Shown in pieces: positions 1,395 through 38,539 of a stretch of 64,000 nt of DNA. The stretch comes from Chloroflexota bacterium. Lineage in GTDB: Bacteria; Chloroflexota; Dehalococcoidia; Lucifugimonadales; JADFKI01. Position 1 is the stretch's first letter. Each line of letters starts with the position of its first letter. The position numbers and the translations under genes are program-made. The stretch is taken from positions 1 to 64,000 of the forward strand of contig VXNZ01000056.1 in the NCBI GenBank assembly GCA_009840355.1, given 5' to 3'. A model generated the notes under the pieces. It made no database searches. It was not told the origin of the DNA and saw only the letters and a list, made by a program, of their open reading frames with translations.

Positions 1395-2423
1395 TTATTC
1401 CAGAGTTTCTAGCGCGGCTGCCACTACTTGCTCCTTTGTAGGAACGAAGAGCGCTTCCAGTGGGCGGCTGTACGGTACGGATGTGTGCGGCGGCTGCACG
1501 CGCTTGGGCGGCGCGTCGAGGTAGTCGAAGGCTTCCTCGGCGACCAGCGCGGATATATCGCCCGCCATGCTGCAGCGCGGGTAGTCTTCGTCCACGATAA
1601 CGATGCGGCGCGTCTTGCGCACGGATTCCAGAATCGCATCTTCGTCCATCGGCGACAGCGACAGCAGATCAACCACTTCGGCGGAGTATCCACGCGCGGC
1701 GAGGTCGTCCGCAGCCTGTAAACATATCTGCGTCATATAGCTGATACCCAGCAGCGTAACATCCGTTCCTTCGCGCGGTACATCCGCCTTGCCCAACGGC
1801 ACGGAGTACGAGTCCTCCGGCACATCCACATCGAAGCGAATGCCCATCAGTTGGCGGTTGTTGCAGATAATCACCGGGTCGTCATCGCGGATGGACGCGG
1901 TGTACAAGCCCTTGGCGTTATACGGATTGGACGGCGCGACTACCTTCAAGCCGGGATAGTGCGTGAACACCGAATAGACCGTCTCGGAGTGCTGCGCGGC
2001 GGAGTTCGTACCGGCGCCCGTGCCGGTCATTATGGTCAGCGGCACTTTGACCTTGCCGCCGAACATATAGTGAATCTTCGCGGCGTTGTTCAGAATCTGG
2101 TCGCCGCAGACGCCGAGAAAGCCGACATACATCAGGTCCACGACGGGTCGCAAGCCCGTGGCGGCAGCGCCAACGCCCGCGCCGACAAATCCGGATTCCG
2201 CGATGGGCGTGTCTCGTATGCGCTCGCGGCCGAAATCGCCGACGAGTCCCTTGGTCAGGCGCATCGGTCCGCCCCATGCGTCCTGGAAGTCCTCGCGCTC
2301 ACCGCCGCCCGCGATGTCTTCGCCCATGATGATGACGGACTCGTCGCGCTCCATCTCCTGTCTCAGCGCCTCATTGACCGCCTGAATATACGAAAGTCTG
2401 CGTGTGGCTGTTGTCTGTACCAT
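1395..2423 (-). CDS. pdhB: 2-oxoacid dehydrogenase E1 beta subunit
   Basis: The 342 aa are full length for the E1beta family. With E1alpha the subunit forms the alpha2beta2 thiamine-diphosphate enzyme that decarboxylates the 2-oxoacid and passes the acyl group to E2. Recognisable blocks are VIIMGEDIAGGG near the N-terminus, RIRDTPIAESGFVGAGVGAA, GTGAGTNSAAQHSE and the C-terminal transketolase-like domain (VEVVDLLSLSPMDEDAI...). The start ATG lies 11 bp after the E1alpha stop, so the two are almost certainly co-translated and made in equal amounts. It could equally belong to an acetoin dehydrogenase (AcoB); the neighbours do not settle this. Confidence 0.93.
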   Translation of the reverse strand: MVQTTATRRLSYIQAVNEALRQEMERDESVIIMGEDIAGGGEREDFQDAWGGPMRLTKGLVGDFGRERIRDTPIAESGFVGAGVGAAATGLRPVVDLMYVGFLGVCGDQILNNAAKIHYMFGGKVKVPLTIMTGTGAGTNSAAQHSETVYSVFTHYPGLKVVAPSNPYNAKGLYTASIRDDDPVIICNNRQLMGIRFDVDVPEDSYSVPLGKADVPREGTDVTLLGISYMTQICLQAADDLAARGYSAEVVDLLSLSPMDEDAILESVRKTRRIVIVDEDYPRCSMAGDISALVAEEAFDYLDAPPKRVQPPHTSVPYSRPLEALFVPTKEQVVAAALETLE

Positions 2424-2434
2424 GCTGTTCTCCT

Positions 2435-3415
2435 CTACCTATAACTCACATACACATCCGTCGTCAGCTCGGACGGGTCAGGGAATGGGCTTTCGTCTGC
2501 GAAGGCGGTTGCGGTTGCGACTGCTGCCAGTGCGCGCTCTTCGAGTGCGCTGATTTCGCCTTCGGCCGCGTAGCCGCCATCCGTTATGTGCGCCCGCAGC
2601 GAGTTGATGCAGTCGCGCGCTTCGTAGTAGTCCTCTTCCTCCTGCGTACGGTAGCCTAACGGGTCGTCCGCGCCGAAGTGTCCTTGATAGCGGTATGTCT
2701 GCGCCTCGATGAGCGTGGGGCCCTCGCCCGCCCTGGCGCGCGCCACCGCTTCCTTGCCGACCTCGAACATGTCGAGCGCGGACTGACCGTCCACAAGCAC
2801 ACCGGGCATGTCATAGCCTGCCGCGCGGTTGGCGATAGAACCGCCTGCGACCGCGTACTCGAACGGCGTGGATTCGGCGTAGCGGTTGTTCTCACAGACG
2901 AAGAGCACCGGCAGTTTCCAAATGCTAGCGATGTTCATGGATTCGTGCAGGCTGCCTTGGCTGGACGCGCCGTCACCAAAGAAGACCACGCTGACCTGAT
3001 CGCTGCCGCGCACCTTCGCGCTGAGCGCCACGCCCGTCGCAACGGGGATGTTCGAGCCGACGACGCCGTTCGCGCCGAGCATGCCCTTGTTGATGTCAGC
3101 AATGTGCATCGTGCCGCCCTTGCCCTTGTTCGTGCCCGTCGCCTTGCCCAGCAGCTCCGCCATCATCTCGTTGATATCGACGCCCTTGGCGATGCAGTGG
3201 TGATGGCTGCGGTGCGTGCCGAGCACATAGTCGTCGTCGCGCAGATGAGCGCAGATGCCCGTGGGCACGGCTTCCTGCCCGATGGACGAGTGCATGCCGC
3301 GCAGCTTGCCCGCGTCCGCCTCGCGCCGCGACTGCTCCTCGAAGCGGCGAATTGTAACCATCGTCTCGTACATCCATAGCAGCGAGTCTTTGTTCAGTTC
3401 CGGATAAGTCGCCAT
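2435..3415 (-). CDS. pdhA: 2-oxoacid dehydrogenase E1 alpha subunit
   Basis: This subunit binds thiamine diphosphate: the sequence has VVFFGDGASSQG followed about 25 residues later by ENN, the family's GDG-N motif. The open frame extends further upstream, but I chose the ATG at 3415 (MATYPELNKD, 326 aa) because GGGAGGAGG lies just before it and because homologous E1alpha proteins begin near this point (LLWMYETMVTIRRFEEQ). HRSHHHCIAKG and the TNKGKGGTMH loop are also typical. It is the first gene of the operon, and a -10-like box lies about 180 bp upstream. Pyruvate or acetoin is the likely substrate class. Confidence 0.93.
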   Translation of the reverse strand: MATYPELNKDSLLWMYETMVTIRRFEEQSRREADAGKLRGMHSSIGQEAVPTGICAHLRDDDYVLGTHRSHHHCIAKGVDINEMMAELLGKATGTNKGKGGTMHIADINKGMLGANGVVGSNIPVATGVALSAKVRGSDQVSVVFFGDGASSQGSLHESMNIASIWKLPVLFVCENNRYAESTPFEYAVAGGSIANRAAGYDMPGVLVDGQSALDMFEVGKEAVARARAGEGPTLIEAQTYRYQGHFGADDPLGYRTQEEEDYYEARDCINSLRAHITDGGYAAEGEISALEERALAAVATATAFADESPFPDPSELTTDVYVSYR

Positions 3416-3823
3416 GAATCTGCCTCCTCCCGCATTTCGTGGGCATTTTGAGTTGCTTGCGTGATGTCGCCCGGTAAGCCCCTTCCCCTGATGGGTAAGG
3501 TTAGAATGTGGACAATGATTCCCCAACCAATCGATGCGTATGTCGTAGGCAAGGCAATAAGCACAATCCAATTTTGGCAGGCCAATTTGGCAGGATTATA
3601 CCAGATTAACGGCATCGGTCTAGTGCGGCGGGAAAGCGGCGCGCGCCATGCTATAATATGCCGAAATTTCCGGCGGCTGCCGGCAATAATTGCAGCGTTT
3701 GCAGTTTGTCGGTCACGGGCGCGCTGGAAGCGGGCGAGACATTAGATATTGCCCCCTTCCTAACCTTCCTCCTGAGCGGGAAGGGATGGTAGCGAAGAAT
3801 ACCCGGAAGAATGTGAGGGCAAA
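3416..3823. other. Divergent intergenic region between E1alpha and amidohydrolase
   Basis: No gene is seen in these 408 bases, which separate two divergent transcription units. The region contains a - strand extended -10 (listed separately), a + strand TATAAT at 3652-3657 without a clear -35 box, and two fragments rich in CCCTTCC/GGAAGGG (about 3480-3510 and 3750-3790) that resemble degraded copies of the palindromic repeat at 51479-51513. Confidence 0.5.
3595..3603 (-). promoter_or_regulatory. Extended -10 promoter element, dehydrogenase operon
   Basis: On the - strand these bases read TGGTATAAT, a perfect extended -10 (TGnTATAAT). The -35 position is poor, as is common for extended -10 promoters. 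Transcription would start near 3588 and leave a leader of about 170 nt before the E1alpha ATG at 3415. Confidence 0.45.
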
Positions 3824-33417: not shown

Positions 33418-33494
33418 GGGCCTGTAGCTCAGCTTGGTAGAGCATCGGACTTTTAATCCGAGTGTCCAGGGTTCGAATCCCTGCGGGCCCACCA
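33418..33494 (+). tRNA. tRNA-Lys (UUU)
   Basis: Acceptor GGGCCTG pairs with CGGGCCC, the D arm is AGCTCAGCTTGGTAGAGC, the anticodon stem TCGGA/TCCGA encloses CTTTTAA (anticodon UUU), and the T arm is CAGGG-TTCGAAT-CCCTG. CCA is encoded at 33492-33494. It is the left flank of the iron-gene island; tRNA 3' ends are frequent integration sites. Confidence 0.96.
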
Positions 33495-33630
33495 CTTCCG
33501 TCCGCGGCGTCCTGTACTGCAAACTTTCTCGCGCCGACGCGCCAGTCCCGAGCAAGGCAGAAGCATTGACAGTAGGTATCAACACTGCAATACTACGGAA
33601 CTTGACCTAGAACTTGGGAGGAAAGGTCGC

Positions 33631-34797
33631 ATGAACGAAGAGGACACACTACAGCAGCGGGATCAAGCCCCGGAACGGTCGAGCCTATACCAGGTCGCGA
33701 TTGTGGGTGCCGGGGCGGCTGGGCTCGGATGCGCGGCCGCCCTCAGGGAGTTCGGCGTTGACGACATCGTCGTCCTCGATCGCCACGAGGTCGGTGCCTC
33801 GTTCCTGCGATGGCCGGAAGAGATGCGATTCATCACACCGTCGTTCACTTCGAACGCGTTTGGGTTGCTCGACCTCAACGCGATCGTCCCCGGCACTTCG
33901 CCCGCCTACACTCTCGACCGCGAACACCCCAGCGGAAGCGACTACGCGCAGTACCTCGACGCCCTCGCTCAGCACTATCAGCTCCCCGTGGAACCTAGCA
34001 TCGATGTCTGCTCTCTCACGACCGAAGACAACGGAACGTTCACCCTCACGACGACCGACCGACCGGTGCGGGCGCGACATGTCATCTGGGCGGCCGGAGA
34101 GTTCCAGTACCCGGAGCGCCATTCATTCGCCGGTGCCGAATACTGCTGCCTTTCCGCCGAGGTTGGCACATGGCAGGAACTTGAGGGCGACCGCTTTACG
34201 GTGATCGGCGGCCACGAGAGCGCCGCCGATGCAGCCGTCTCGCTCGTGCAGCTGCAAAAGAGCGTGACCGTGCTGGCGCGGACAGCGTCCTGGAAGAGCG
34301 ATGCACCGGACCCGAGCATCGCCCTCTCCCCATATACCCGCGAACGTCTCGAAAAGGCACACAACACTGGCTTCGTGGACTTCGTCGAGGATGCCAACAT
34401 CACGTCGGTGCGCAAGGACGGAGACACCTGGGTCGTCAAAGACTCGGATGGCCGCGAGTGGGCGAGCGAGACGCGCCCGATCCTAGCTACGGGCTTCGCG
34501 GGATCGCTCGGCCACCTCGACGGCATGATCGAATACGACGAGTCCGGCCTCCCCGTCGTCACGGAAGAGGCAGACGAATCCACGCTCGTGCCCGGCCTGT
34601 TCATATCCGGCCCGATGCTCCAGCACCGGGGCGTGAGCTTCTGCTTCATCTACAAGTTCCGCCAGCGCTTCGCGGTCGTCGCGAATGCGATCGCACAGCG
34701 CCTCGGAATGGACACGACGGATGCCGTTGCATTCCGCCGAGCGACGGGGATGTACCTCGACAACCTCACTGGCTGCCATGAATCCTGCGAGTGCTGA
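33631..34797 (+). CDS. FAD/NAD(P)-dependent oxidoreductase
   Basis: A 388 aa flavoprotein with an N-terminal FAD loop (VAIVGAGAAGLGCAAAL, about 24-40), a second nucleotide-binding loop VIGGHESAADAAVSL (about 191-205) and a LATGFAGSLGHLDG block typical of two-dinucleotide-binding enzymes such as YpdA- or FMO-like reductases. It ends in GCHESCEC, an unusual cysteine-rich tail. GGAGGAAAGG precedes the ATG. It overlaps the FeoB-like gene by 20 bp, so the two are coupled. Its placement suggests a role in iron reduction or redox control of iron transport; the substrate is not shown. Codon choice looks richer in C-ending codons than flanking genes. Confidence 0.82.
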   Translation: MNEEDTLQQRDQAPERSSLYQVAIVGAGAAGLGCAAALREFGVDDIVVLDRHEVGASFLRWPEEMRFITPSFTSNAFGLLDLNAIVPGTSPAYTLDREHPSGSDYAQYLDALAQHYQLPVEPSIDVCSLTTEDNGTFTLTTTDRPVRARHVIWAAGEFQYPERHSFAGAEYCCLSAEVGTWQELEGDRFTVIGGHESAADAAVSLVQLQKSVTVLARTASWKSDAPDPSIALSPYTRERLEKAHNTGFVDFVEDANITSVRKDGDTWVVKDSDGREWASETRPILATGFAGSLGHLDGMIEYDESGLPVVTEEADESTLVPGLFISGPMLQHRGVSFCFIYKFRQRFAVVANAIAQRLGMDTTDAVAFRRATGMYLDNLTGCHESCEC

Positions 34798-36445
34798 ACA
34801 CCGTGACTTCGATGTCGCGGCGCCTTGCACCACGCTCCTCCTGGGACGCGAAAGCGTCGGCAAGTCCGCACTGGTCCGTGCCCTGACGGGCCAGCCTGCG
34901 CGGAGCGTGAACTTCCGCGGCACCACCGTGTCCTGCGGCGAGTACACTACCTCCAGCCGCGTCTTCGTGGACACGCCGGGGCTGCACCGCGCCTCAGATG
35001 CCGACACCGTGCAGCTCACGTTGGAGGCGCTCTCGGACGCGGACGAAGTGTTGCTCGTCGCCTCTGCGACGCAGCTCGACGAGGACCTTGACCTCTTGCT
35101 GCCGCTCGTCCTGGGGAGGCGAGCAAGTATCGCCGTTACGCGCTGGGACCTCGTCGCCGACCATGCCGCGGCTCGCGAAACGATCGGGCGCATGGCACTG
35201 GAGACCGGGCTGCCATTCGTGGTGCTCGACGCGCGCCGTCCCGATGCCGCGGCGCTCGAGGAATTGCAGGCAGCCATCACGGCACCCGGCACAGTCCGCC
35301 ATAGGCGAACGCCTGTGAGGGCGGGGTGGCGGATCGAGCCGCGGCGCGGCGTCCTTGACCACAAGGGCGCAGGTCCAGCAACCGCAGTCGTCCTCCTCAT
35401 CGTGCCGGCGCTGCTCGCCGTGCTCGGTGCGAACCAGATCGCCGCCTGGCTAGAGCCGCTGGCCGAGGCGGGCACGACACCCCTGGCCGAGCGGATAGTG
35501 CACTGGCCGGGACCGGTCGGAACTGTGCTCGCGGGCGACTACGGCTTGCTCACGATGGGGCCGCTGTTGTTCGCGTGGGCGGTCCCCACCGTGCTGATCT
35601 ATGCGGTGGTGATCGGCATCTACAAGACGAGTGGTCTCAACGACCGCATCGGGACGACGCTCCACCCCCTATTGCGGCCGGTTGGCTTGCACGGGCGCGA
35701 CGTGACGCGGACGCTGATGGGCTTCGGCTGCAACGTCCCGGCGATCATCTCGACATCCGCCTGCTCTGCCTGCACCCGGCCGACAACCGTCGGCGCGATC
35801 GCCTTCGGTGCCGCCTGTTCGTACCAGCTCGGCGCGACCCTCGCGGTCTTCGCCGCCGCGGGCAGAAGCAGTCTCGTCGTCCCGTACCTCGCGCTGCTTG
35901 TCGCGGCAACGCTCGTGTACGCGCGCCTCACCAGCGACCCAGCCGCGCGGTCGCCGCTCAACACACTCCTCATCGAGCAGCGCACCTTCCTCACCCTGCC
36001 CTCGTTCGCGGCAGTCGGCGCGGAGGCACGAGGGATAGTTTGGGCGTTCTTCGGCACGGCGCTTCCAACCTTCTTCGCAATCGCGATGGTCGCGTCGCTC
36101 CTAGACTGGTCGGGTGTGCTCGATGCAGCGGGGCATCTGCTGGCACCGGCGATGGCAGTGTTCGCACTGCCGGTGGACGCGGCATTGCCGACCGTGCTCG
36201 CCGCCGTACGCAAGGACGGAATCCTGCTCCTGGCAGAGGAAGGCACCGTGGCATCGTTGAGCGCGACACAATTGCTGGTGGCAACTTTTCTCGCCGGAAC
36301 GGTGCTGCCATGCCTGGTCACCGCGATCACCATTGGGCGCGAACTCGGGCTACGGTTCACGGGCAGGCTTCTCGTGCAACAGGCCGCCTTTGCCGTCGCG
36401 ATCTCCGCCGCAGTCGGCTGGGGCTCGGCCGCGTTCGGTGGGTGA
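34778..36445 (+). CDS. Shortened FeoB-like Fe(II) transporter
   Basis: A 555 aa protein with an N-terminal GTPase domain fused to a membrane domain. The G domain has GRESVGKS (23-30), DTPG (65-68) and TRWD (121-124) in the place of N-KxD. The membrane part carries GFGCNVPAI (315-323), the FeoB gate motif, followed by ACSACTRPTTV with a CxxC. FeoB is normally 700-770 aa with NMxD; here the linker is reduced and G4 is altered. The ATG at 34778 (MNPASAEHRD) lies within the end of the flavoprotein gene. It likely moves Fe(II) across the membrane, but metal specificity needs testing. Confidence 0.8.
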   Translation: MNPASAEHRDFDVAAPCTTLLLGRESVGKSALVRALTGQPARSVNFRGTTVSCGEYTTSSRVFVDTPGLHRASDADTVQLTLEALSDADEVLLVASATQLDEDLDLLLPLVLGRRASIAVTRWDLVADHAAARETIGRMALETGLPFVVLDARRPDAAALEELQAAITAPGTVRHRRTPVRAGWRIEPRRGVLDHKGAGPATAVVLLIVPALLAVLGANQIAAWLEPLAEAGTTPLAERIVHWPGPVGTVLAGDYGLLTMGPLLFAWAVPTVLIYAVVIGIYKTSGLNDRIGTTLHPLLRPVGLHGRDVTRTLMGFGCNVPAIISTSACSACTRPTTVGAIAFGAACSYQLGATLAVFAAAGRSSLVVPYLALLVAATLVYARLTSDPAARSPLNTLLIEQRTFLTLPSFAAVGAEARGIVWAFFGTALPTFFAIAMVASLLDWSGVLDAAGHLLAPAMAVFALPVDAALPTVLAAVRKDGILLLAEEGTVASLSATQLLVATFLAGTVLPCLVTAITIGRELGLRFTGRLLVQQAAFAVAISAAVGWGSAAFGG

Positions 36446-36542
36446 ACGTCCACGTCCAGCCTGCGGGTATGACCGTCTGGCAATTGGCACCCCGCACCGC
36501 TTCCTCGTGCCTACAGCAAGACCTGCCACCGACATGAGCGTA

Positions 36543-37385
36543 TTATCGGATTCCCGTCGGTTGACGCCTTTCCAGCATCGCCTTAAACCGACGGGTCTGT
36601 TCTTCCCTGGGGCGAAGGATGCAATTGGAGCAGTACAACTTGTCCTCTCGGGTGCGCCAGACCAGGCAGCATCCAGCCCGCCTAGCAAAGAACCCGCTCT
36701 TCCCTTCATGGTGGATGACTTCCATACTGACTTGGCGGTAAATCAGAGATGACTCGTCTCCGAAGAAGGTCTCGGCAGCCTTGAGTACCGGGCTCTTGTC
36801 TTCCACGTGCCAATAAAGCCGGTGCAGGGCCTGAGCACACGAAGCGGCTACCGCATTTTGAGAGACCTTGACGCTGGCGGGGACGGAGCGACACAGGGCA
36901 GCAATCACGATTTCCAAGTTGGACTTGAAGACCCAGTCCTTGAGTCGCCGGTACAGGTCGGTCTCGCTGCGCAGGACTTCAGCGTCAGGGTGACCGGCCG
37001 CCGGGTCATTGGGAAGGACGGCGAACTGCGGGCGCCTCAGTCCGGTTGCGTCGATACGACCATCGGTACGATGAAAGACCAAGTTTTCGAGAGTCACTCT
37101 GGGGACCCTCCTCTTGAGTACATACTGGCTGACCATCGGATAGACTAACCTTGTGAGGTAGCCCATAATGAAGGCAGAGGCAGCAACGTGATTGTTGGTA
37201 GTCCCCCATCTTTCGTAGCCGTAGCTCATCACCAGTTCACGCAGACTGGTATCCTCTGCCTGGAACAGGGCGACAGCCGGGCTCCAGCCGGTATCGTTAA
37301 CTTCAGATACCGGCATGTAGAAATATGGGTCCAGCTCTCCGGCTTCCCCCAGACTATGAATCAAAGGATGTTCAGTCCTGGACAT
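36543..37385 (-). CDS. FhuF-like siderophore-iron reductase
   Basis: A 280 aa protein with the FhuF-type C-terminal cysteine cluster: C239-C240, eleven residues, then C252-xx-C255 (AGCCLVWRT ... YCSNCIL). In FhuF this set binds a 2Fe-2S cluster used to reduce ferric siderophores in the cytoplasm; E. coli FhuF is of similar length with a ten-residue gap. The upstream part is helical with no signal peptide. The ribosome site AGGTGAAGAGAA precedes the ATG at 37385. It faces the FeoB-like gene tail to tail. The family call rests on the cysteine pattern and overall size. Confidence 0.65.
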   Translation of the reverse strand: MSRTEHPLIHSLGEAGELDPYFYMPVSEVNDTGWSPAVALFQAEDTSLRELVMSYGYERWGTTNNHVAASAFIMGYLTRLVYPMVSQYVLKRRVPRVTLENLVFHRTDGRIDATGLRRPQFAVLPNDPAAGHPDAEVLRSETDLYRRLKDWVFKSNLEIVIAALCRSVPASVKVSQNAVAASCAQALHRLYWHVEDKSPVLKAAETFFGDESSLIYRQVSMEVIHHEGKSGFFARRAGCCLVWRTREDKLYCSNCILRPREEQTRRFKAMLERRQPTGIR

Positions 37386-37546
37386 TTCTCTTCACCTTTC
37401 AACTACAAAGTTAGCCTTCAACCGAAGCATTAACTAAAATATCGCGGGTCGATCAAATCTCAAATCCCGTCTCCCAACAGATTGAATCTCAAAACTGTTA
37501 ATCTTACCATGACACTGGGGAAAATCATGAACTGCGGTTAGCTCGA

Positions 37547-37697
37547 AGACGATTTCACAAATGCGTTCCCTTACATAAAAAAGCAAGGTAAGGGAGGTAA
37601 AAGCCTACCGATTGTAGGGGCGTTCGGCCGGACGCCCCTACGAAATTGCCATTTGCCAGCCCAATTTTCATCATCAGGGGAATTTGTGAGATCGTCT
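37547..37697. repeat. MITE-like element, family 1 ends with different interior (copy E)
   Basis: Ends AGACGATTTCACAAAT (37547-37562) and ATTTGTGAGATCGTCT (37682-37697) are inverted with one mismatch. The 151 bp interior differs from the other copies: it holds a perfect 10 bp hairpin, GTAGGGGCGT (37614-37623) and ACGCCCCTAC (37632-37641), plus GGTAAGGGAGG. It fills part of a 535 bp gap (37386-37920) without genes and lies at the far edge of the iron-gene island. Confidence 0.75.
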
Positions 37698-37920
37698 CAC
37701 CAGTGGGAGGCACATCAGGCATTTCCCCAATAGTTAGTCTTCAAAATGGCGCGCGGCGCCCTCGCCATCCGAGAAAATTGCCTAAACATGGTCTGCTCTC
37801 CGATTGACTTAGCACATTAGAGTTTATAGAATCCGATACTACGAGATGCAAACATCGCGAAGTCAACACGCTCGCCCTAGACGCCACTAGCCGCGCCGAG
37901 CGGCGATCGGAGCGAATTCT

Positions 37921-38391
37921 ATGCCAGCCAAGACCGCCAAGCGAACGAAAAAATGGTCGAATAAAGATTTGCCCCTTGCTGCTGACGGAAAGACTCGCCT
38001 TCTTTCCGGCGGCAATCCGCAGATTCCGAAGGGCGACGGGGATGCGCCTGTGCAGCGGTACATCGGCGCGATGCCAGAGTGGAAGTCCGATGTCGGCCGG
38101 CGCATAGACGAGCTTATCGTGAGCAATGTGCCCGGCGTGCGTAAAGCAGTGCGCTGGAACTCGCCCTGGTACGGCGTGGATGGCATGGGTTGGTTCGTCA
38201 GCTTCCATGTGTTCGCGCGCTACATCAAGGTAACCTTCTTGCAGGGCGCGTCGCTTGACCCCGTGCCGCCCGGCTCCGGCAAAGACCCGGATGCGTGCTG
38301 GTACGACATCTACGAAGGCAAGTTCGACGAAGAGTTGTTCGTGGATTGGGTCAAGCAGGCTGCCGCCATTCCCGGCTGGGACGGGTTCTAG
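37921..38391 (+). CDS. DUF1801 domain protein
   Basis: A 156 aa protein of the DUF1801 family, recognised from PVQRYIGAMPEWKSDVGRRIDELI, GVRKAVRWNSPWYGV and GWFVSFHVFARYIKVTFLQG. The fold is described for YdhG-like proteins; the function is unknown. The N-terminus (about 1-20) is lysine-rich and may be unstructured. No ribosome site stands out before ATG 37921. It is followed by ggt after 148 bp. Confidence 0.8.
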   Translation: MPAKTAKRTKKWSNKDLPLAADGKTRLLSGGNPQIPKGDGDAPVQRYIGAMPEWKSDVGRRIDELIVSNVPGVRKAVRWNSPWYGVDGMGWFVSFHVFARYIKVTFLQGASLDPVPPGSGKDPDACWYDIYEGKFDEELFVDWVKQAAAIPGWDGF

Positions 38392-38539
38392 CGAGAAGCT
38401 GACAGTAAACACCAATCGCCCCATCCTAACCCTCCCTCCGAGAATTATCAAAGGGAAGCGACAGGCGAGTGCCAATAGTTGCTCATCGTGCTATCATCCT
38501 GAATATAGACGCATATTCTTGCACGCAGGAGGATAGCCA

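What the first reader, a model, noticed from the sequence alone, without database searches (positions are those of the whole stretch)
33418..37697. tRNA-Lys-adjacent iron-acquisition island
A flavoprotein with a cysteine-rich tail, a shortened FeoB-like transporter (GFGCNVPAI) and a protein with a FhuF-like CC-x11-CxxC cluster lie between tRNA-Lys and a MITE-like element. The first two overlap by 20 bp. By eye their codon use is more C-ending than the neighbours, which fits transfer. A possible scheme: FhuF-like reductase frees iron from a siderophore, the flavoprotein supplies electrons, and the FeoB-like protein moves Fe(II). No integrase or second tRNA end was found.
Basis: partly seen in the sequence, partly recalled or inferred. 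Interest (0 to 1): 0.6.

Follow-up and report, generated by a model that had tools for sequence, protein, structure and literature searches.

The report
Zinc-starvation gene pair mistaken for iron
Two overlapping genes that look like an iron-uptake pair belong to a family that, across many bacteria and archaea, sits among genes switched on when cells run out of zinc, so they most likely form a little-noticed zinc-handling system; the nearby iron-type gene is an unrelated neighbour.

Summary
The three genes are real and lie where described, but they are not one iron island. The flavoprotein (33631-34797) and the FeoB-like permease (34778-36445) form a two-gene module. It recurs in Chloroflexota, cyanobacteria, planctomycetes, Bacillota, Actinomycetota, Pseudomonadota, Nitrososphaerota and haloarchaea. 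Its neighbours are zinc-starvation genes: COG0523 GTPases, ZnuABC, Zur, and spare S14, L33, HisI, CysRS, FolE2 and PyrC copies. COG0523 genes lie beside it in 26 of 37 genomes against 0.7 expected. Zur-box-like operators precede it in cyanobacteria, Bacillota and Pantoea. In S. aureus the syntenic operon is induced 152-, 83- and 43-fold by calprotectin (PMC5480029). The flavoprotein ends in a conserved CC-x3-C-x-C tail. The permease is a clade separate from FeoB, with an added CxxC beside the GxGCN gate; some copies lack the GTPase domain. The FhuF-like gene is genuinely siderophore-reductase-like, but was not found beside the pair elsewhere, and its genome lacks FecCD permeases and canonical FeoB. 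A same-genus genome shows an empty site between the tRNA-Lys 3' end and the next gene, so this is an insertion hotspot, but codon use of the pair is ordinary. Zinc role: likely. Exact chemistry: inferred.

The parts
33418..33494 (+). tRNA-Lys(TTT); left boundary of the insertion
   Evidence: ARAGORN; homology with same-genus genomes ends at or near its 3' end
33567..33581 (+). degenerate copy (TGACAGTAGGTATCA) of a palindrome, TGATACTNAGTATCA, found at -64 to -74 before the flavoprotein gene in several Chloroflexota; candidate operator overlapping a -35-like TTGACA
   Evidence: 3 mismatches to the relatives' consensus in the window, so weak here
33631..34797 (+). flavoprotein: FAD/NAD(P)H pyridine-nucleotide oxidoreductase with C-terminal Cys tail (family consensus LDDLSCC-x3-C-x-C at the C-terminus)
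   Evidence: Pyr_redox_3 E 2.5e-97; profile match to 3d1c E 2.3e-116; AF2 pLDDT 88.4 and 3d1c Z 43.1
34778..36445 (+). FeoB-like permease: GTPase domain plus two Gate domains; five family-invariant membrane-domain Cys (318, 329, 332, 347, 512)
   Evidence: Pfam; alignment; tree against canonical FeoB; AF2 pLDDT 85.9
36543..37385 (-). FhuF-like protein (CC-x11-CxxC); separate from the pair
   Evidence: PF06276 26.1 bits; relatives lie among FecCD and Peripla_BP_2 genes
   Evidence: also found in locus L095 from a relative
37921..38391 (+). DUF1801 protein; shared with sister genome G002, which lacks a detectable pair
   Evidence: homology from 37742 in G002
33495..38526 (.). 5.0-kb stretch absent at the empty site of genome G004

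Best explanation
The flavoprotein and FeoB-like genes are a horizontally spread zinc-starvation module. Shown by comparison: a conserved pair embedded in Zur-type neighbourhoods in many phyla, with Zur-box-like operators in several, and a syntenic staphylococcal operon induced by calprotectin. Inferred mechanism: when zinc is scarce the pair is derepressed. The FeoB-like permease carries Zn(II) through a gate lined by five cysteines, the FeoB three plus a new CxxC; the GTPase domain is an optional regulator. The NAD(P)H/FAD flavoprotein docks at the cytoplasmic face. Its C-terminal CC-x3-C-x-C thiols are kept reduced by the flavin, take the incoming zinc or reduce thiols of the permease or a downstream carrier, and pass the metal on, often to a COG0523 (CobW/ZNG-type) GTPase encoded alongside. 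In the window genome the pair probably supplies zinc the same way, as an inserted cassette next to tRNA-Lys.
For: Of 80 flavoprotein loci, 52 have the FeoB-like gene in the held DNA; 33 lie on the same strand within 150 bp and 23 overlap. CobW near the pair in 26 of 37 genomes against 0.67 expected (P about 1e-38, not corrected for relatedness) and ZnuA in 9 against 0.28 (Pfam identity of neighbours). Annotated contexts: Pantoea pyrC-thrS-CA-folE2-dksA-cobW-repressor-cysS-FLAV-FEOB-queD-like-zigA; Haloferax and Halocatena cobW/FLAV-S14-FEOB; Paenibacillus cobW-rpsN-FLAV-FEOB-rpmG; Paracoccus aztABCD-repressor-cobW-FLAV-cysS; S. epidermidis znuA/FLAV-FEOB-cobW. Operators: TCGTAATAATTACGT 49 bp before the S. 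epidermidis pair, TGATAATNATTATCA (0-2 mismatches) in many cyanobacteria, TGTTATGTTATAACA in Pantoea. S. aureus NWMN_2483-2481 induced 152/83/43-fold by calprotectin with rpsN2, adcA and cnt (PMC5480029). Family-specific residues. Canonical FeoB is a separate gene in 10 of 16 searched genomes.
Against: No metal specificity has been measured for either protein. The window genome's own copy is not next to zinc genes, and its candidate operator is degenerate. 28 of 80 loci show no FeoB-like gene in the held DNA, some cut by contig ends, so the flavoprotein may act without it. 27 of 66 loci outside the closest Chloroflexota set show no listed zinc marker within the held flank. Calprotectin also withholds manganese and iron. 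The window flavoprotein has Gly at one of the four tail cysteine positions.
Confidence: 0.62

Rival explanations
1. Iron island as first proposed: FhuF-like reductase frees iron from a siderophore, the flavoprotein supplies electrons and the FeoB-like protein imports Fe(II).
For: FhuF-like homology with relatives in FecCD/periplasmic-binding operons; FeoB fold of the GTPase domain; the three FeoB cysteines are kept.
Against: The FhuF-like gene is beside the pair in no other locus and lies on the opposite strand with different codon use; no FecCD permease above cut-off and no canonical FeoB in this genome; the pair's context elsewhere is zinc starvation.
Confidence: 0.06
2. The pair is part of the zinc-starvation response but imports a substitute metal (Mn, Fe or Co) for the spare zinc-independent enzymes encoded nearby.
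For: Frequent linkage to spare enzymes such as HisI, CysRS, FolE2 and PyrC; FeoB ancestry as an Fe(II) carrier.
Against: Equally frequent linkage to COG0523 GTPases and ZnuABC, which handle zinc; extra thiolates in the gate and tail suit Zn(II) at least as well.
Confidence: 0.12
3. The flavoprotein is a general redox enzyme of zinc-starved cells (a disulfide reductase or monooxygenase that repairs thiols left without zinc, or acts on a small metallophore), and the FeoB-like permease carries something else or acts alone.
For: Many loci have the flavoprotein without the permease in the held DNA; after 3d1c the fold is nearest YpdA bacillithiol disulfide reductase and then flavin monooxygenases; S. 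agalactiae AdcR regulon lists a 'flavoprotein involved in potassium transport' (PMC11580457; homology untested).
Against: Translational overlap of the two genes in distant phyla.
Confidence: 0.2

Closest known systems
FeoB ferrous iron transporter (TIGR00437, PF02421 + PF07670 + PF07664)
   Same: GTPase domain fold (3iby Z 19.0, 165 aligned, rmsd 3.0), two Gate domains, GFGCNVPA motif and three shared membrane cysteines
   Different: Sister clade (support 0.97/1.0); no FeoB_C match; TIGR00437 92 bits against a cut-off of 316; added CxxC, RKDG in place of A[KR]E, TxxD in place of NxxD, GTPase domain lost in some members
PDB 3d1c, S. aureus NP_373108.1 'putative flavin-containing monooxygenase', and the operon NWMN_2483-2481
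   Same: Full-length family member including the Cys tail (E 2.3e-116; Z 43.1, rmsd 2.0, 354 aligned); the S. aureus operon has the same order (flavoprotein, hypothetical, COG0523) as S. epidermidis
   Different: Entry named only by fold, without an assigned function; the S. epidermidis permease lacks the GTPase domain. That 3d1c is NWMN_2483's ortholog is inferred, not tested here
YpdA/Bdr bacillithiol disulfide reductase
   Same: Two-dinucleotide-fold flavoprotein (7a7b Z 32.0, rmsd 2.6, 314 aligned)
   Different: NCBIfam YpdA 89.5 bits against a cut-off of 339.9; lacks the YpdA Cys of the first glycine motif (GGGPCG in YpdA, GAGAAG here; alignment); has the Cys tail
ZepA zinc-acquisition exoprotein (PMC10957091)
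   Same: Zur-linked zinc acquisition conserved across distant phyla
   Different: A different, exported protein; the paper text holds none of the words oxidoreductase, GTPase or reductase
Siderophore ferric reductase FhuF (PF06276)
   Same: Third gene: Cys motif and Pfam match
   Different: CC-x11-CxxC in place of CC-x10-CxxC; no siderophore permease found in this genome

Membership tests
FeoB | score above the TIGR00437 equivalog cut-off | tested here: not met
   92.4 bits against 315.65
FeoB | FeoB_C domain (PF07664) | tested here: not met
   no match in the protein or anywhere in the genome
FeoB | NxxD G4 motif in the GTPase domain | tested here: not met
   TxxD in the FeoB-like proteins that have the domain, NxxD in the canonical set
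FeoB | Gate domains with GxGCNVP and conserved Cys | tested here: met
FeoB | Fe(II) transport | not testable with these tools
   needs a transport assay
Zur regulon member (family level) | Zur-type operator upstream | tested here: met
   in cyanobacteria, Bacillota and Pantoea; consensus forms from general knowledge
Zur regulon member (window copy) | Zur-type operator upstream | tested here: inconclusive
   degenerate palindrome at 33567-33581
Zur regulon member (family level) | induction by zinc limitation | not tested
   published only: S. aureus operon under calprotectin (PMC5480029); C. glutamicum cg0795, whose homology is untested (PMC2823685)
YpdA/Bdr | score above the TIGR04018 cut-off | tested here: not met
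   89.5 against 339.9
3d1c-type flavoprotein family | full-length match including the C-terminal CC-x3-C-x-C tail | tested here: met
   the window copy has GC in place of CC
FhuF | PF06276 above cut-off and a CC-x10-CxxC cluster | tested here: inconclusive
   26.1 against 25.2 bits; spacing is x11
tRNA-borne genomic island | insertion at a tRNA 3' end relative to an empty site | tested here: met
   G004 empty site
tRNA-borne genomic island | integrase and flanking direct repeat | tested here: not met
   no direct repeat; no integrase among the genes named between 33495 and 38526

The most novel reading that the evidence does not exclude
A previously unnamed family of zinc importers derived from the FeoB fold works as a pair with a flavoprotein whose C-terminal four-cysteine tail is a redox-switched zinc acceptor. 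This would be a new mode of metal import in which NAD(P)H drives zinc capture on the inner face of a permease that needs no GTPase, spread between bacteria and archaea as a cassette.
Probability: 0.3. Interest if true: 0.85.

Novelty: new variant of a known kind. Interest (0 to 1): 0.62.

Why it matters
A protein group annotated 'ferrous iron transporter B', 'FeoB small GTPase domain' or 'nucleoside recognition domain' protein appears to belong to the zinc-starvation response of many bacteria and archaea, so iron and zinc predictions in many genomes would change. It suggests a role for a crystallised orphan (3d1c) and for a strongly calprotectin-induced staphylococcal operon, and raises a testable question: why a redox-inert metal needs a flavoprotein partner.

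Tried and rejected
Three-gene iron island: rejected, because the FhuF-like gene is not linked to the pair elsewhere. Codon-use evidence for transfer of the pair: rejected. MITE: only a REP-like hairpin was found. att repeat of the tRNA: none in the window. Homology of C. glutamicum cg0795: not tested; none of the family members found among 296 Actinomycetota genomes had its operator motif. Paracoccus denitrificans zinc RNA-seq: the search words found no matching oxidoreductase. Literature: the searches run found no paper in the held library that describes the pair as a zinc system; the library lacks most subscription journals, so earlier notice is possible. The structure list for the permease was dominated by the GTPase domain; the membrane part resembles concentrative nucleoside transporters (8tzd Z 18.3, 296 aligned, rmsd 4.3), which shows fold only.

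Full report
What is there. The described features are present at the stated places: tRNA-Lys 33418-33494, a 388-aa flavoprotein, a 555-aa FeoB-like protein overlapping it by 20 bp, a minus-strand FhuF-like gene, a hairpin at 37614-37641, then a DUF1801 gene and a 599-aa gene that I call GGT (gamma-glutamyltransferase-like, named by eye and not run through a family search).

Insertion. In genome G004 of the same genus (6 contigs, 94% complete) the order is signal peptidase, tRNA-Lys, GGT, with about 60 bp between tRNA and GGT homology; the window has 5.0 kb there. Sister genome G002 (about 92% nucleotide identity) matches through the tRNA 3' end and then carries a different stretch with a serine-recombinase remnant; the DUF1801-GGT side matches from 37742. 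G001 carries yet other genes after the tRNA. The tRNA 3' end is therefore an insertion hotspot, and the DUF1801 part may be a separate event. The permease is absent from the four same-genus genomes and was found in 3 of 60 relatives; the FhuF-like gene was found in this genome with one weak partial match elsewhere. The pair's codon use is ordinary for the window, while the FhuF-like gene ranks 6th of 49 for oddness.

The pair elsewhere. A scan of one genome for each of 84,980 species gave 260 relatives of the flavoprotein, of which the best 80 loci were kept: 63-79% identity in Chloroflexota and one lake MAG filed as Gemmatimonadetes, about 42-54% in cyanobacteria, planctomycetes, Bacillota, Actinomycetota, Verrucomicrobiota and marine Nitrososphaerota. 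52 of 80 have the FeoB-like gene in the held DNA, 33 of them on the same strand within 150 bp and 23 overlapping. The FhuF-like gene was found in none of them.

Zinc context. Clustering the neighbours and naming cluster representatives with Pfam gave cobW+CobW_C, ZnuA, ABC-3 permease, FUR family, PRA-CH (HisI), CysRS and GTP cyclohydrolase I, the kind of genes listed for Zur regulons by Haas et al. 2009 (PMC2770081). Using whole-genome counts, cobW lies in the locus in 26 of 37 genomes against 0.67 expected and ZnuA in 9 against 0.28; relatedness was not corrected for, but the loci span many phyla. Annotated plasmids give the clearest pictures: Pantoea soli, Haloferax gibbonsii, Halocatena marina, Paenibacillus cellulositrophicus, Paracoccus sp. 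MA, Acaryochloris marina and Staphylococcus epidermidis. Zur-box-like palindromes precede the flavoprotein gene in many cyanobacteria (TGATAATNATTATCA, 0-2 mismatches), in Bacillota including S. epidermidis (TCGTAATAATTACGT) and in Pantoea (TGTTATGTTATAACA); the consensus forms used are from general knowledge. In Chloroflexota relatives a palindrome TGATACTNAGTATCA sits at -64 to -74; the window copy is degenerate.

Published expression. In S. aureus Newman the operon NWMN_2483 (FAD-dependent pyridine nucleotide disulfide oxidoreductase), 2482 (hypothetical), 2481 (COG0523) rises 152-, 83- and 43-fold with calprotectin, together with rpsN2, adcA and cnt (PMC5480029). The S. epidermidis operon has the same order; its first gene is a family member (36.8% identity to the window protein) and its second a FeoB-like permease without the GTPase domain (322 bits to the family profile). 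That NWMN_2482 is the same permease is inferred from synteny. C. glutamicum cg0795, an oxidoreductase bound and repressed by Zur next to COG0523 gene cg0794 (PMC2823685), and an AdcR-controlled flavoprotein in S. agalactiae (PMC11580457) are leads; homology was not tested.

Protein features. Flavoprotein: C338, C386 and C388 are invariant in 83 sequences, C382 93%, C381 89% (Gly in the window), C172 89%; the model matches 3d1c over 354 residues, Z 43.1, rmsd 2.0, then YpdA at Z 32. Permease: invariant C318, C329, C332, C347, C512 and RKDG. Against seven canonical FeoB proteins taken from genomes that also carry the flavoprotein, the FeoB-like proteins form a separate clade (0.97/1.0); C318, C347 and C512 are shared, while C329-x2-C332, RKDG and TxxD are specific. 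GTPase-domain loss is seen in Chloroflexota (L007, L008, L014-L016), in G025 and in S. epidermidis.

Third gene. Distant Chloroflexota relatives (22-27%) carry CC-x10-CxxC; where neighbours were examined (L169-L172) they include FecCD or periplasmic-binding genes. So the FhuF reading is sound, but this 97%-complete genome has no FecCD permease above cut-off and no canonical FeoB.

Conclusion. A zinc-starvation role for the family is well supported by context and by published expression in one organism; for the window copy it is carried over by homology. Zinc import with a thiol-tail flavoprotein partner is the mechanism I consider most likely; the steps after 'zinc-starvation module' are inference.

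Noticed in passing
plasmid search: Relatives of both genes occur on about 499 Klebsiella and 20 Escherichia plasmids in PLSDB; each gene alone gives the same record counts, so the pair appears to travel together in clinical Enterobacterales.
   Followed up: no
L132 about 2285-3577 (genome G002): A fragmentary serine recombinase reading lies just downstream of the same tRNA-Lys in the sister genome, suggesting the element type that uses this site.
   Followed up: partly
L007, L008, L014, L015, L016: Several Chloroflexota copies of the FeoB-like gene have lost the GTPase domain while the start next to or within the flavoprotein gene remains.
   Followed up: partly
Haloferax L136 9062-9247, Halocatena L139 9056-9241: An S14 ribosomal protein gene lies between flavoprotein and permease genes in haloarchaea, pointing to a Zur-like zinc response in archaea.
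   Followed up: no
Enterococcus faecalis plasmids, hits H41-H46: Flavoprotein relatives are present, but Enterococcus was not among the organisms named for the FeoB-like protein in the same collection; partner unknown.
   Followed up: no
window 37614-37641: REP-like hairpin GTAGGGGCG...CGCCCCTAC; the same form occurs in locus L095 of a relative.
   Followed up: partly
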